Shown here: positions 18,846 through 22,113 of the stretch, in pieces
Layout of the letters: every line of letters begins with the position of its first letter
Numbering within the stretch: the first letter of the stretch is position 1
Source of the DNA: Cyclobacteriaceae bacterium
Lineage (GTDB): Bacteria > Bacteroidota > Bacteroidia > Cytophagales > Cyclobacteriaceae
Direction: 5' to 3'
DNA length: 36,256 bases
NCBI GenBank assembly: GCA_947458475.1
Contig: CANGZP010000017.1
Span: 1 to 36,256 of the forward strand
Notes under the pieces: model-generated
The model's input: the letters and a program-made list of their open reading frames with translations, nothing else
Database searches by the model: none
What the model was told of the DNA's origin: nothing
Translations under genes and position numbers: made by a program

Positions 18846-20633
18846 ATGAAAAACATTCGAAATTTCTGCATCATTGCCCACATTGACCACGGCAAAAGTA
18901 CCCTAGCAGACCGGTTGCTGCAGACGACCAACACGGTTTCTGACCGAGAAATGCAAAACCAGTTGCTAGACGACATGGATCTGGAGCGGGAGCGTGGCAT
19001 CACGATCAAGTCCCATGCCATCCAGATGAAGTACAACTACAAGGGAGAGGAATACATTCTCAACTTGATTGATACGCCAGGTCACGTGGATTTTTCGTAT
19101 GAGGTGTCTCGCTCTATTGCAGCTTGCGAGGGTGCATTGCTTATCGTAGATGCCTCCCAAGGGGTAGAAGCACAGACCATTTCCAATTTGTATTTGGCAT
19201 TGGGGCATGATCTAGAAATCATCCCTGTGTTGAATAAAATAGATTTACCTGGTGCAGATCCTGAGGTGGTTGCGGATGAAGTAATTGACCTTTTGGGTTG
19301 CAAGCGGGAGGACATCGTGTTGGCTTCGGGCAAAGAAGGCATCGGAATCGAGGATATTTTGGCCAAGGTGATTGAAAATATCCCGCCACCCAAAGGGGAT
19401 CCCGAGGCTCCGCTTCAGGCCATGATTTTTGACTCTCAGTTCAACTCCTTCCGTGGCGTTGAAGTAATCTTCCGAATTTTCAACGGTACGCTCAAGAAAG
19501 GCGATCGCATCAAATTTGTCAATACCGGCAAGGAATACTTTGCCGATGAGATAGGGATTTTGGGGATCAACCAGATTCCGCAGCAAACCATGAGTGCGGG
19601 TAACGTAGGGTACCTCATTTCAGGAATCAAGGTAGCCAAAGAAGTAGCAGTGGGGGATACGGTGACACATGTCAAAAACCCTTGTGCAGAAGCCATCAAG
19701 GGCTTTGAAAATGTGAAACCTATGGTCTTTGCAGGAATTTATCCTGTGGATACTACCGAGTTTGAAGAGCTACGTGCCTCCATGGAAAAGTTGCAGCTCA
19801 ACGATGCCTCCCTCGTTTGGGAGCCGGAAACATCCGCGGCCTTGGGCTTTGGCTTCCGATGCGGATTTTTGGGCATGTTGCACATGGAGATTGTTCAGGA
19901 GCGTCTGGAACGTGAGTTTGACATGACGGTCATCACCACAGTGCCTTCCGTGCAGTTTAAGGCCCTTATGACCACAGACGAGTACCAGGTGGTGAATGCG
20001 CCTTCCGATATGCCTGATCCTACGCGGTTCAAGCACATCGAAGAGCCGTTTGTAAAGGCATCCATTATCACGGCCGCAGAATACGTGGGTCCTGTGATTT
20101 CCCTTTGCATGGACAAGCGAGGTCAAATTAAAAACCAGGTATACCTCACGGCTGATCGGGTGGAGTTGTCCTTCGATATGCCCTTGGCGGAAATTGTATT
20201 TGACTTCTTTGATCGTTTGAAGACGATTTCCAGAGGCTATGCTTCTTTGGATTACGAACTAAAGGGCTTTCAGGAGTCGCACATGGTGCGCCTAGATATC
20301 ATGCTCAATGGAGAACCGGTGGATGCGCTATCCGCGATAGTGCACCGCGACAAGGCCTACGAATGGGGCAAGCGCCTATGTGAGAAATTAAAGGAGCTGG
20401 TACCGCGTCAAATGTTTGAAATTGCCATTCAGGCGGCCATCGGTCAAAAAATCATTGCTCGTGAAACGGTGAAAGCCTTGCGTAAAAACGTGTTGGCCAA
20501 GTGCTATGGTGGTGATATTTCGCGTAAGCGCAAACTCTTGGAAAAGCAGAAGAAAGGCAAGAAGCGTATGCGCCAAGTTGGTAATGTCGAGATCCCGCAA
20601 GAGGCCTTTATGGCGGTGTTGAAGCTAGACTAG
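18846..20633 (+). CDS. lepA: Elongation factor 4 (LepA) GTPase
   Basis: A 595-residue translational GTPase (EF4), which binds the ribosome and affects initiation and back-translocation under stress. G1 is AHIDHGKST (11-19), switch I/G2 lies in [14 protein letters not shown]3 is DTPGHVDF and G4 is NKIDLPGAD. They are followed by domain II, the EF-G-like domain III/V, and the LepA-specific C-terminal domain with [30 protein letters not shown], whose basic residues contact the tRNA acceptor region. Length is the family norm. The start is set by the promoter at 18824-18831. There is no adjacent lepB, unlike in proteobacteria. Confidence 0.98.
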
Positions 20634-20657: not shown

Positions 20658-21217
20658 TTCTTCATTATTCTTAATTCATCATTCGACATTCATCATTCGA
20701 CATTTACGTACTGTAAATAGATAGAATGCCAATTTTCGATTTTAATTTTTTTATCGATTACACCTAATTTTTTTTGACTGAAGTAATGATGGAAAAGAAG
20801 TTTGATTTAGAAGAGCGGCTAATTGAGTTTGCTGCACAATTAATCCAGTTTACTGAAACCATGGTTTCCAGTAAATCTGGAAATCATCTAGCAAATCAAC
20901 TCTTGAGGAGCGGAACAAGTCCTGCTTTGAATTATGGAGAAGCCCAGAGTGGTGAATCGAGAAAAGATTTTATCCATAAGTTTAAAGTCATATTAAAAGA
21001 GTTAAGAGAGACCCTGATAGGTTTAAAAATTGTAGAAAAAGCAAAGCTGCATCAGGATGTGGAGTTTTTGAATAAAGTAAAAGATGAGTGCAATCAGTTG
21101 ATTTCTATTTTTGTCAAAAGTGTGTTGACTGCAGAAAGGAATAGATTTCAATAGCTGGAACTAAGTAAAAAATAATGAATGTCGATTGTTGAATATCGAT
21201 TGAAGAATAATGTAGAA
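20658..21217. mobile_element. Inverted-repeat cassette carrying a four-helix-bundle gene
   Basis: The ends are a 15-bp inverted repeat with one mismatch (20658-20672 and 21203-21217), 10 bp of which (CATTATTCTT) are identical. Directly inside the left end are two perfect tandem 14-mers, CATCATTCGACATT (20677-20690 and 20691-20704). Inside the right end are two degenerate copies in reverse complement (21178-21205). Both flanks have an underlying 7-bp period. The only gene inside is the four-helix-bundle protein; no transposase is present, so any mobility would depend on factors elsewhere. Calling it mobile is inference from this structure. Confidence 0.45.
20786..21154 (+). CDS. Four-helix-bundle protein (S23/IVS-type, TIGR02436-like)
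   Basis: A 122-residue all-helical protein of the family first known from open frames in 23S rRNA intervening sequences, and related in fold to the Avd accessory protein of diversity-generating retroelements. Signature segments are LEERLIEFAAQLIQFTE, the GNHLANQLLRSGTSPALNYGEAQ core with its conserved S..SP..N...A pattern, and FIHKFKVILKELRETLIGLKI. ATGs at 20786 and 20789 are both possible; a TTG at 20774 is less likely. The gene sits inside an inverted-repeat cassette. It is probably a basic, nucleic-acid-associated pentamer by analogy, but its function is unknown. Confidence 0.9.
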   Translation: MMEKKFDLEERLIEFAAQLIQFTETMVSSKSGNHLANQLLRSGTSPALNYGEAQSGESRKDFIHKFKVILKELRETLIGLKIVEKAKLHQDVEFLNKVKDECNQLISIFVKSVLTAERNRFQ

Positions 21218-21228
21218 TAAAAGATCCC

Positions 21229-22113
21229 ATGGCAATCCTAATAGACGGAAAAAAAACCTCCCAAGACATCAAAAATGAAATTGCAGCGCGGGTAGCAGAA
21301 ATTAAACAAGAAGGCGGCAAGCAACCGCACCTTGCAGCAATCCTGGTAGGAGAAGATGGCGCTAGCCAAACCTATGTAGGCGCCAAAGTGAAGGCCTGTG
21401 AGGAAGTTGGATTTACGTCTACGCTGGTACGGCTGCCTGCTGAGGTGAGTGAGGAAGAGTTGCTCCGCACCGTGGAGGACATCAACCAAAATCCAGACAT
21501 CGATGGCTTGATCGTGCAGCTTCCCCTGCCCAAGCATATTTCAGTAGATAAGGTAACCAACTGCATTCGTCCAGAAAAAGACGTGGATGGTTTTACTCCT
21601 GCCAACGTGGGCAGAATGACCCTCAACTGGCCTGCCTACGTGGCGGCAACGCCTTACGGAATTGTGGAACTTTTGAAGCGCTACCAGATCGAAACTTCCG
21701 GTAAGCACTGTGTGGTCATCGGCCGAAGCCATATTGTGGGGAGTCCGATGAGCATCTTGATGGCGAGAAATGGCTATCCAGGCAATGCTACCGTGACCCT
21801 GACGCATTCCAAGACTGAAAACCTGGCAGCGATTTGTAAGACTGCCGATATTTTGATTGTGGCAATCGGCAAACCCGAGTTTGTGACAGCTGACATGGTG
21901 AAGCCAGGTGCGGTTGTAATTGATGTGGGGATTCACCGCATTGCCGATGAGACCAAGAAAACAGGTTTCCGATTGATTGGTGATGTCAAGTATGAGGAAG
22001 TAGCGCCTCTTGCATCTGCCATTACTCCTGTACCGGGTGGGGTAGGACCTATGACCATTGCGGCTTTGCTGTACAATACGCTTCAATCCGCTGAAAAGAA
22101 GGTTTTTGGTTAA
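21229..22113 (+). CDS. folD: Methylenetetrahydrofolate dehydrogenase/cyclohydrolase
   Basis: A 294-residue bifunctional cytosolic enzyme that converts 5,10-methylene-THF to 10-formyl-THF, supplying formyl groups for purine synthesis and initiator tRNA. Visible motifs are the substrate-site [15 protein letters not shown] with catalytic Lys in Y(V)..[10 protein letters not shown], the PCTP-equivalent region reading [10 protein letters not shown] (an altered form in which Cys is absent), NADP site [17 protein letters not shown], and [18 protein letters not shown] at the C-terminus. The ATG at 21229 lies 12 bases after the right end of the cassette, so any original promoter may lie beyond it or in the cassette end. 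A hairpin at 22145-22163 follows the gene. Confidence 0.96.

What the first reader, a model, noticed from the sequence alone, without database searches (positions are those of the whole stretch)
20658..21217. Four-helix-bundle gene packaged in an inverted-repeat cassette with 7-bp-period flanks
The S23/IVS-type gene is enclosed by 15-bp inverted ends (one mismatch) and, inside them, by two 14-mers on each side in opposite orientation. The left pair is perfect and the right pair is diverged. The 14-mer is two related heptamers. Proteins of this family are known as passengers in 23S rRNA intervening sequences, so a free-standing repeat-bounded copy between lepA and folD suggests a small non-autonomous element, possibly one whose protein recognises the repeats.
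Basis: partly seen in the sequence, partly recalled or inferred. Interest (0 to 1): 0.62.

Follow-up and report, generated by a model that had tools for sequence, protein, structure and literature searches.

The report
Swappable gene cassette with seven-base arms
Between two housekeeping genes sits a small gene framed by two mirror-image sets of about five seven-letter repeats; many relatives of this gene in several bacterial phyla have the same frame, the package is swapped between species, and the repeat count may match the five-part ring that such proteins form.

Summary
In detail: the two arms are the only tandem repeats found in the window, and the gene is the only one of 29 scored with inverted flanks. 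It generalises. Of 151 TIGR02436 (S23/four-helix-bundle) loci across Bacteroidota, 88 have significantly inverted flanks (about 1.5 expected; direct-repeat control 14). The arms have period 7, sometimes 8; the unit differs from site to site but is shared by both arms. Ten of 12 fetched plasmid copies (Cyanobacteria, Treponema, Chlorohelix) also pass. In Bacteroidota the unit count per arm peaks at five under most settings; a 21-locus hold-out gave 4-5; plasmid left arms are often longer. Solved relatives have five chains per entry. In 49 relatives the lepA-folD gap holds allele A (19), B (23) or neither (7), without phylogenetic signal; one near-identical cassette sits between diverged flanks, so it transfers as a unit. 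The layout matches S23-bearing 23S rRNA intervening sequences, but in operon gaps. My reading: an exchangeable IVS-type cassette whose arms bind its own pentamer, one heptad per subunit. Architecture is near certain, exchange well supported, binding inferred. Tests for selection on an RNA stem were negative.

The parts
18846..20633 (+). lepA, upstream host gene; the left arm begins 24 nt after its stop codon
   Evidence: Pfam LepA_C 181 bits, GTP_EFTU 187 bits; ORF
20658..20705 (+). left arm: inverted partner of 21170-21217; heptad array with core ATTC (spacers TTA/ATC/GAC/ATC/GAC), about five units; outer 15-mer 20658-20672
   Evidence: TRF 20661-20698, period 7, 5.4 copies
20786..21154 (+). 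S23-family four-helix-bundle gene (ATG at 20786 or 20789), 'type A' allele
   Evidence: TIGR02436 71.4 bits; PF05635 40.6 bits; AlphaFold2 model with four helices, mean pLDDT 91.3; best solved folds 2RLD and 2GSC; dN/dS 0.08 among six close relatives, 15 pairs
21170..21217 (+). right arm: diverged heptad array, inverted relative to the left arm; outer 15-mer 21203-21217
   Evidence: TRF 21177-21209, period 14, 2.4 copies
21229..22113 (+). folD, downstream host gene; starts 11 nt after the right arm; in relatives its first about 18 nt can travel with the cassette
   Evidence: Pfam THF_DHG_CYH and THF_DHG_CYH_C; flank linkage; alignment

Best explanation
The region is an exchangeable cassette of the 23S-rRNA-intervening-sequence (IVS) kind that lives in the gap between two genes of an operon. 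It consists of one S23/four-helix-bundle gene, read in the direction of the host genes, between two inverted arms, each a degenerate array of about five heptamers; together they fill the gap from the host stop codon almost to the next start codon. SHOWN by computation: the architecture, its spread over much of the family, the period, the peak of the unit count near five in Bacteroidota, the lack of phylogenetic signal of the cassette alleles at lepA-folD, transfer of a cassette as a unit, and purifying selection on the protein. INFERRED: the protein, whose solved relatives are pentamers, binds its own arms with one heptad per subunit (compare the TRAP ring, recalled), most likely on DNA since both arms are equally regular; this marks the cassette ends and may aid its exchange or regulate it. 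Each cassette has its own unit, which tends to follow the protein.
For: 88 of 151 TIGR02436 loci beat the 99th percentile of dinucleotide shuffles for left flank versus reverse complement of right flank, 57 of 151 beat all 1510 shuffles, cross-locus pairs pass in 3.4% of 1510. Controls: 15 of 238 neighbour genes pass 25 and 2 pass 32; 17 of 358 genes in 80 other loci pass 25 and 10 pass 32; 1 of 29 window ORFs passes; the same flanks compared in direct orientation pass in 14 of 151, 5 of them not inverted. Lag-7 and lag-14 self-identity 0.556 and 0.539, other lags 0.23-0.31; periods 7 and 8 stand out. Plasmids: 10 of 12 fetched copies pass 25, 11 of 12 beat all 200 simple shuffles; each 4HB gene scores highest among the genes scored in its locus, the other 27 at most 21. 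Units per arm, 94 period-7 loci, 4-nt core with one mismatch: left 4:24 5:35 6:11, right 4:22 5:40 6:10; shuffled flanks mostly 1-2; 74 arrays without a 4HB hit have a broad spread. Hold-out of 40 unused loci: 21 pass, all period 7; 19 of 42 arms have 5 units, 13 have 4, none 6. Pentamer: 2RLD and 2GSC, the best fold matches, are each listed with chains A-E; Xanthomonas S23p is called a homopentamer in PMC4990558. Exchange: 20 label changes on a 48-row lepA tree, shuffled mean 20.5, 101 of 200 as low; A and B never in one genome, 0 of 59 (Fisher p 2e-7); L132/L143 cassette 98-100% identical over most of its length between lepA and folD ends at about 82%. Unit follows protein across sites: share of pairs with unit similarity above 0.7 rises from 0.02 (below 25% identity, 2109 pairs) to 0.37 (60-80%, 43 pairs). 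119 of 147 loci lie in the sense of both neighbours, 14 antisense to both. dN/dS 0.08 (15 pairs, A) and 0.14 (10 pairs, B).
Against: No binding data exist here. 63 of 151 loci and 19 of 40 hold-out loci fail the inverted-flank test. The count of five depends on settings: with a 5-nt core and one mismatch the left-arm mode is 4; with an exact 3-nt core the one-per-site mode is 4; with a 3-nt core and one mismatch the drop after five is shallow on the left (33 to 27). In the hold-out the left arm ties at 4 and 5, and with the exact core its mode is 3. Period-8 loci: mode 4 left, 5 right; the 11 plasmid loci counted have left arms of 4-20 units (two with 5) and right arms mostly 4 (6 of 11). So five is a peak, not a law. 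Loci were selected for inverted flanks, which disfavours short arms. Unit-follows-protein is partly shared ancestry. A search from one heptamer (GACAGAT) found a 4HB gene within 600 bp in only 4 of the 80 loci examined, so heptad arrays also exist without the gene. In Coxiella the authors think S23p is probably not made and the RNA matters more, and saw no growth effect of S23p in E. coli (PMC4990558). No movement between sites was seen in this genus.
Confidence: 0.45

Rival explanations
1. RNA-level IVS: the arms matter as a stem in the operon mRNA. The hairpin encloses the 4HB message and is cut by RNase III, as in 23S rRNA IVSs, separating upstream and downstream messages; the heptads are just how the stem is built.
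For: The window gap folds with the arms paired, z -2.96, 0 of 100 shuffles as stable. The Coxiella IVS is cut by RNase III in vitro and its cleavage site lies at the start of its heptamer repeats (PMC4990558). 119 of 147 cassettes lie in the host sense, 14 antisense to both neighbours. A weak register effect exists: 53 of 67 loci match better than the median of unit-shuffled arms.
Against: No sense-strand preference: mismatches that would be G.U pairs in the sense RNA 98, in the antisense RNA 127; sense duplex more stable in 49, antisense in 63 of 115 loci, p 0.21. Shuffling unit order lowers the match only from 37.0 to 31.7 on average, with 5 of 67 loci at p below 0.05. Arms also occur where the gene is antisense to both neighbours or between opposed genes (6 of 14, 5 of 6, 5 of 8).
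Confidence: 0.27
2. Mutational by-product: heptad arrays grow by slippage and the two arms are kept alike by template switching between inverted repeats; the arms have no function and the 4HB gene only hitch-hikes.
For: Arm sequence drifts fast (first 50 nt of the L132/L143 gap 86% alike against 98-100% in the gene). Some cyanobacterial arms are near-perfect copies and long. Heptad arrays occur without the gene (76 of 80 loci examined have none within 600 bp in the fetched stretch).
Against: It does not explain why this gene family is singled out in Bacteroidota, Cyanobacteria, a Treponema and a Chloroflexota plasmid, why counts fall after five in most settings, or why the unit follows the protein across sites.
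Confidence: 0.18
3. The A/B pattern at lepA-folD is old tandem cassettes with differential loss, not exchange between species.
For: Several junctions hold an array of one type next to a cassette of the other (by eye: L075, L093, L098, L099, L130, L133; L090, L142). Within type, distances track lepA (Mantel r 0.76 for A, 0.34 for B).
Against: None of 49 junctions and none of 59 genomes holds both genes. L132/L143 share a near-identical cassette between diverged flanks, and nearest neighbours by lepA and by 4HB agree in only 7 of 19 (A) and 8 of 18 (B).
Confidence: 0.12

Closest known systems
23S rRNA intervening sequence (IVS) with S23p ORF, e.g. Coxiella burnetii (PMC4990558)
   Same: S23-family ORF in sense with the host transcript, inside terminal inverted repeats; tandem heptamers (GACAGAT, two or three by strain, plus one degenerate) before the start codon; scattered distribution, proposed as a transferred element
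   Different: lies in helix 9, 25 or 45 of 23S rRNA; 28-bp stem with one mismatch and a bulge; excision by RNase III shown in vitro. Here: between protein genes, arms share a unit rather than exact pairing, excision unknown. I read passages and the Discussion; figures are not held
TIGR02436 / PF05635 four-helix-bundle (S23) proteins; 2RLD (BT_0352), 2GSC (Xcc0516)
   Same: family membership and fold
   Different: the family models describe the protein only; I saw no mention of flanking repeats outside rRNA in the listings and passages I looked at
Avd of diversity-generating retroelements (4DWL, 8UB7; NF033474)
   Same: similar four-helix fold (TM 0.72-0.74, Foldseek E 0.23-0.48); a relative from L215 matches the Avd model at E 2.3e-5, below its cut-off, one from L226 matches PHROG 3206 Avd; Avd is part of the DGR ribonucleoprotein (title of 8UB7)
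   Different: no Avd match for the window protein at E 0.001 or in PHROGs at 0.01; no reverse transcriptase domain among the 10 neighbouring proteins scanned
Heptanucleotide repeats: cyanobacterial STRRs (recalled) and TAACTGA repeats (PMC4679880)
   Same: intergenic tandem heptamers; Cyanobacteria and Bacteroidetes among the hosts
   Different: TAACTGA sets in one genome are 169 direct and one indirect; the terms S23 and four helix do not occur in that paper's main text (passages seen)
TRAP (trp RNA-binding attenuation protein), recalled
   Same: proposed logic: a ring binds tandem short repeats, one per subunit
   Different: unrelated fold, 11 subunits, one RNA site, not a mobile cassette; binding is not shown here

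Membership tests
TIGR02436 four helix bundle / PF05635 23S_rRNA_IVP | score above the curated cut-off | tested here: met
   71.4 bits vs 24; 40.6 vs 33.8; type B 74.8 vs 24
23S rRNA IVS | insertion inside the 23S rRNA gene (helix 9, 25 or 45) | tested here: not met
   lies between lepA and folD; Rfam at gathering scores finds only one tRNA in the window
23S rRNA IVS | terminal inverted repeats able to form a stem | tested here: met
   arms pair in the predicted RNA fold
23S rRNA IVS | S23 ORF in sense with the host transcript (in the ORF-bearing kind) | tested here: met
   window gene is on the strand of lepA and folD; 119 of 147 family loci in sense of both neighbours
23S rRNA IVS | excision from the transcript by RNase III | not testable with these tools
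   needs RNA; sequence tests for selection on an RNA stem were negative
DGR / Avd | match to the Avd model, with a reverse transcriptase close by | tested here: not met
   window protein hits TIGR02436 and NF008911, not NF033474; no reverse transcriptase domain among 10 neighbours
DGR / Avd | template and variable repeats | not tested
   not sought
Transposon / insertion sequence / MITE | transposase close by, or close copies at several sites | tested here: not met
   no transposase domain among 10 neighbours; close type A and B proteins at lepA-folD, one contig-end fragment apart; relatives at 40-55% identity do lie at other sites
Transposon / insertion sequence / MITE | target-site duplication | not tested
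   no systematic test; edges lie at or just inside the host genes
Defence system | match to a PADLOC model | tested here: not met
   0 families at E 0.01 for three proteins; some plasmid copies do sit inside or beside defence genes

The most novel reading that the evidence does not exclude
A widespread class of mini-elements, of which S23-bearing rRNA IVSs are the known tip: each carries one gene for a pentameric four-helix ring and is bounded by two inverted heptad arrays that are binding sites for that ring, one heptad per subunit. Unit and protein co-diversify, so every site has its own 'address', and cassettes displace one another as mutually exclusive alleles between essential operon genes.
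Probability: 0.34. Interest if true: 0.92.

Novelty: new variant of a known kind. Interest (0 to 1): 0.77.

Why it matters
S23/four-helix-bundle proteins are very common in Bacteroidota (TIGR02436 in 223 of 296 sampled genomes), and PMC4990558 says they have no known function and that the function and origin of IVSs remain unclear. Tying the protein to a readable DNA feature, inverted heptad arrays of about five units, gives a concrete ligand to test. It links things kept apart in what I read: IVSs, Avd-fold proteins and intergenic heptamer repeats. The lepA-folD locus, where mutually exclusive cassettes show no phylogenetic signal, is a ready system for studying how such cassettes move.

Tried and rejected
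RNA stem selection: wobble asymmetry and sense/antisense duplex energies were negative (in one search the antisense kind was even in excess, 107 vs 76, p 0.026); unit-order shuffling shows a weak register effect at most. One-arm (single-strand) recognition: left and right arms are equally regular, 0.702 vs 0.710, p 0.20. Phase variation with silent copies: no copy of type A at E 1e-20 besides the lepA-folD one in genomes with type B (drafts may be incomplete). Exchange by long recombination tracts: lepA near the junction shows little linkage with cassette type (one window, 120-180 nt before the stop, 14 of 300 shuffles; others weaker), the first 30 nt of folD do (0 of 300). Reverse search from a heptamer to the gene: mostly arrays without the gene. 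Defence gene: no PADLOC match.

Corrections and gaps: one search used a frame-shifted type A query, replaced. One search printed minus-strand loci unflipped, replaced. One search stopped with an error after six loci, so flanks of L242, L251, L275 and of the phage loci L333 and L334 were not scored. The junction table covers 49 of 56 genomes with a folD match (six not fetched, L097 cut off); L083 was left out of the lepA tree. The 151 loci favour high-scoring family members. Of 23 plasmid records 20 were listed and 12 fetched.

In print: literature searches (open-licence library, no preprints; several listings show only the top of a longer list) showed no paper linking four-helix-bundle/S23 genes outside rRNA with inverted heptad arrays. 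Seen: passages and Discussion of PMC4990558; passages of PMC4679880, PMC5524665, PMC8700078; otherwise listings and the starts of abstracts. Subscription papers were not searchable.

Full report
WHAT IS THERE. The window is a whole contig (C17) of an unnamed draft genome of 2.77 Mb, 78.7% complete (that it belongs to Bacteroidota is my inference from gene content and relatives). Between lepA (18846-20633) and folD (21229-22113) lies a gene of the S23/four-helix-bundle family (TIGR02436, PF05635). It is enclosed by inverted arms 20658-20705 and 21170-21217. The arms are degenerate heptad arrays and are the only tandem repeats found in the window at score 40. Among 29 greedily chosen window ORFs only this one has inverted flanks (score 40, next 22).

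IT IS A FAMILY FEATURE. I took 151 TIGR02436 loci from own-genome, family, phylum and four-genome searches (L009-L071, L102-L129, L150-L209). In 88 of 151 the 220-nt left flank matches the reverse complement of the right flank better than the 99th percentile of dinucleotide shuffles (score above 25); 57 of 151 beat every one of 1510 shuffles; flanks paired across loci pass in 3.4%. Controls: 15 of 238 neighbour genes pass 25 and 2 pass 32; 17 of 358 genes in 80 other loci pass 25 and 10 pass 32. Compared in direct orientation the same flanks pass in 14 of 151; 79 loci pass only inverted, 9 both ways, 5 only direct, so a few cassettes have direct arrays. In the 88 loci the arms have self-identity 0.556 at lag 7 and 0.539 at lag 14, 0.23-0.31 at other lags. 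Of the 63 loci that fail, 35 have a period-7 array in at least one flank. The unit differs between sites (GTAC-type at sucB-lpd, AGAC-type at thiolase/acyl-CoA dehydrogenase, AAAG-type of period 8; the gene names of these sites are my reading of the flanking ORFs, not a database call) but is shared by both arms of a locus. All three copies found in the window's own genome pass (L009 42, L010 40, L011 67), though L011 has no clear heptad period.

OTHER PHYLA. Of 23 plasmid records with a match (20 listed) I fetched 12: ten cyanobacterial, one Treponema, one Chlorohelix. Ten of 12 pass 25 (L332 scores 25, L342 21); 11 of 12 beat all 200 simple shuffles, the twelfth 198 of 200. In each locus the 4HB gene scores highest among the genes scored; the other 27 reach at most 21 (in L331 and L341 no other gene could be scored). 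Some arms are exact, such as TAATTCG repeats in Dolichospermum and Nostoc. Several copies sit inside or beside defence genes (helicase and DNA methylase; cas genes). A published rRNA case fits: the Coxiella 23S IVS has a 28-bp terminal stem, an S23 ORF, and two or three GACAGAT heptamers plus a degenerate one before the start codon, with the RNase III site at the start of the first repeat (PMC4990558). Its authors think the protein is probably not made there.

WHERE IT SITS. In 147 of 151 loci both neighbours are within 400 nt; 119 are in the sense of both, 14 antisense to both, 14 between opposed genes. In 72 sense loci with arms the left arm starts a median 2 nt after the upstream stop codon (48 of 72 within 10 nt) and the right arm ends a median 8 nt before the downstream start of the longest ORF (49 of 72 within 0-30 nt). 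The cassette thus fills the gap from stop to start.

ABOUT FIVE UNITS. I counted the longest in-phase run of the unit core. With a 4-nt core and one mismatch, of 94 period-7 loci the left arms have 4:24, 5:35, 6:11 and the right 4:22, 5:40, 6:10. With an exact 3-nt core the counts fall from 26 to 3 (left) and 30 to 3 (right) between five and six. In four of five settings the mode is five in both arms; with a 5-nt core and one mismatch the left mode is four. Taking one locus per site (28 sites) the mode is five in four of five settings, four with the exact 3-nt core. Shuffled flanks give mostly 1-2; 74 arrays without a 4HB hit have a broad spread (3:10 4:18 5:8 6:6 7:13 and on). With settings fixed I then fetched 40 loci not used before: 21 pass, all of period 7, and of 42 arms 19 have five units, 13 four, none six; the left arm alone ties at four and five, and with the exact core its mode is three. 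The plasmid arms do not show five: of 11 counted, left 4-20 units, right mostly four. Solved relatives look pentameric: the best fold matches 2RLD and 2GSC are listed with chains A to E, and the Xanthomonas protein is called a homopentamer in PMC4990558. One heptad per subunit is an inference.

A SWAPPED CASSETTE. In 59 genomes of the genus folD was found in 56; I could read 49 junctions. 19 hold type A (the window's), 23 type B (27-42% identical to the window protein; three with stops inside), 7 none (gaps of 14 to 288 nt). On a lepA tree of 48 genomes the three states need 20 changes; shuffled labels average 20.5. Sister species differ, for example L093 (A) and L094 (B), whose lepA is identical from 350 to 51 nt before the stop, with differences in the last 50 nt. 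A (at least 65% identical) and B (at least 62%) are never in one genome (0 of 59), and lie at lepA-folD apart from one contig-end fragment of B (read); relatives at 40-55% occur at other sites. L132 and L143 have lepA about 82% and the start of folD about 81% identical but a cassette 98-100% identical over most of its length. L096 (B) and L130 (A) share a B-type left array, after which L130 continues with an A cassette; their folD differs in the first 18 nt and hardly after. The swapped segment thus reaches at most about 50 nt into lepA and 20 nt into folD in these pairs. The protein is under purifying selection, dN/dS 0.08 (A) and 0.14 (B).

RNA OR DNA. The window gap folds with the arms paired (z -2.96), but evolution gives no sign of selection on an RNA stem: G.U-type mismatches are not in excess on the sense strand (98 vs 127), sense duplexes are not more stable (49 vs 63 of 115), and both arms are equally regular. 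What is kept is mainly the unit, not exact pairing. I therefore prefer recognition of double-stranded arms, with modest confidence.

VERDICT. An exchangeable S23 cassette with the layout of a 23S IVS but placed between protein genes. It is not an IVS in the strict sense (wrong location, excision untested). The architecture and its generality are near certain; exchange is well supported; binding by the pentamer is my best explanation of the arms and the decisive thing to test.

Noticed in passing
L329, L330, L332, L342, L344: Four-helix-bundle genes on cyanobacterial and Chloroflexota plasmids sit inside or beside defence genes (helicase - 4HB - DNA methylase, drmD - 4HB - pglX, csx2 - 4HB - cas1, between cas2 and cas1 on the opposite strand).
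   Followed up: partly
L011 (G000:C23:21216-24539): A third copy in the window's genome has inverted flanks (score 67) that contain a GC-rich palindrome CCCCGCAAGCGGGG and no clear heptad period; L122 and L123, in the same site cluster, also lack a clear period 7.
   Followed up: no
L125, L186, L160: Heptad-like arrays flank the gene in direct, not inverted, orientation.
   Followed up: no
PMC5524665 Table 5 (Flavobacterium columnare): A four-helix-bundle gene between guanylate kinase and a nicotinate-nucleotide adenylyltransferase gene is listed there as part of a phage region; it looks like another operon-gap cassette.
   Followed up: no
L210-L289: Tandem GACAGAT arrays without a four-helix-bundle gene in the fetched stretch occur in many phyla, up to 36 units; their nature is unknown.
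   Followed up: partly
L335 (G000:C15:17337) and L338 (G000:C79:2001): Two further window-type heptad arrays in the same genome, on contigs without a TIGR02436 hit; L338 also holds TACGAGG- and GTACTTG-type arrays close by, perhaps remains of cassettes.
   Followed up: no
L333, L334: Two phage records from human faecal samples encode a relative of the window protein; flanks not scored.
   Followed up: no
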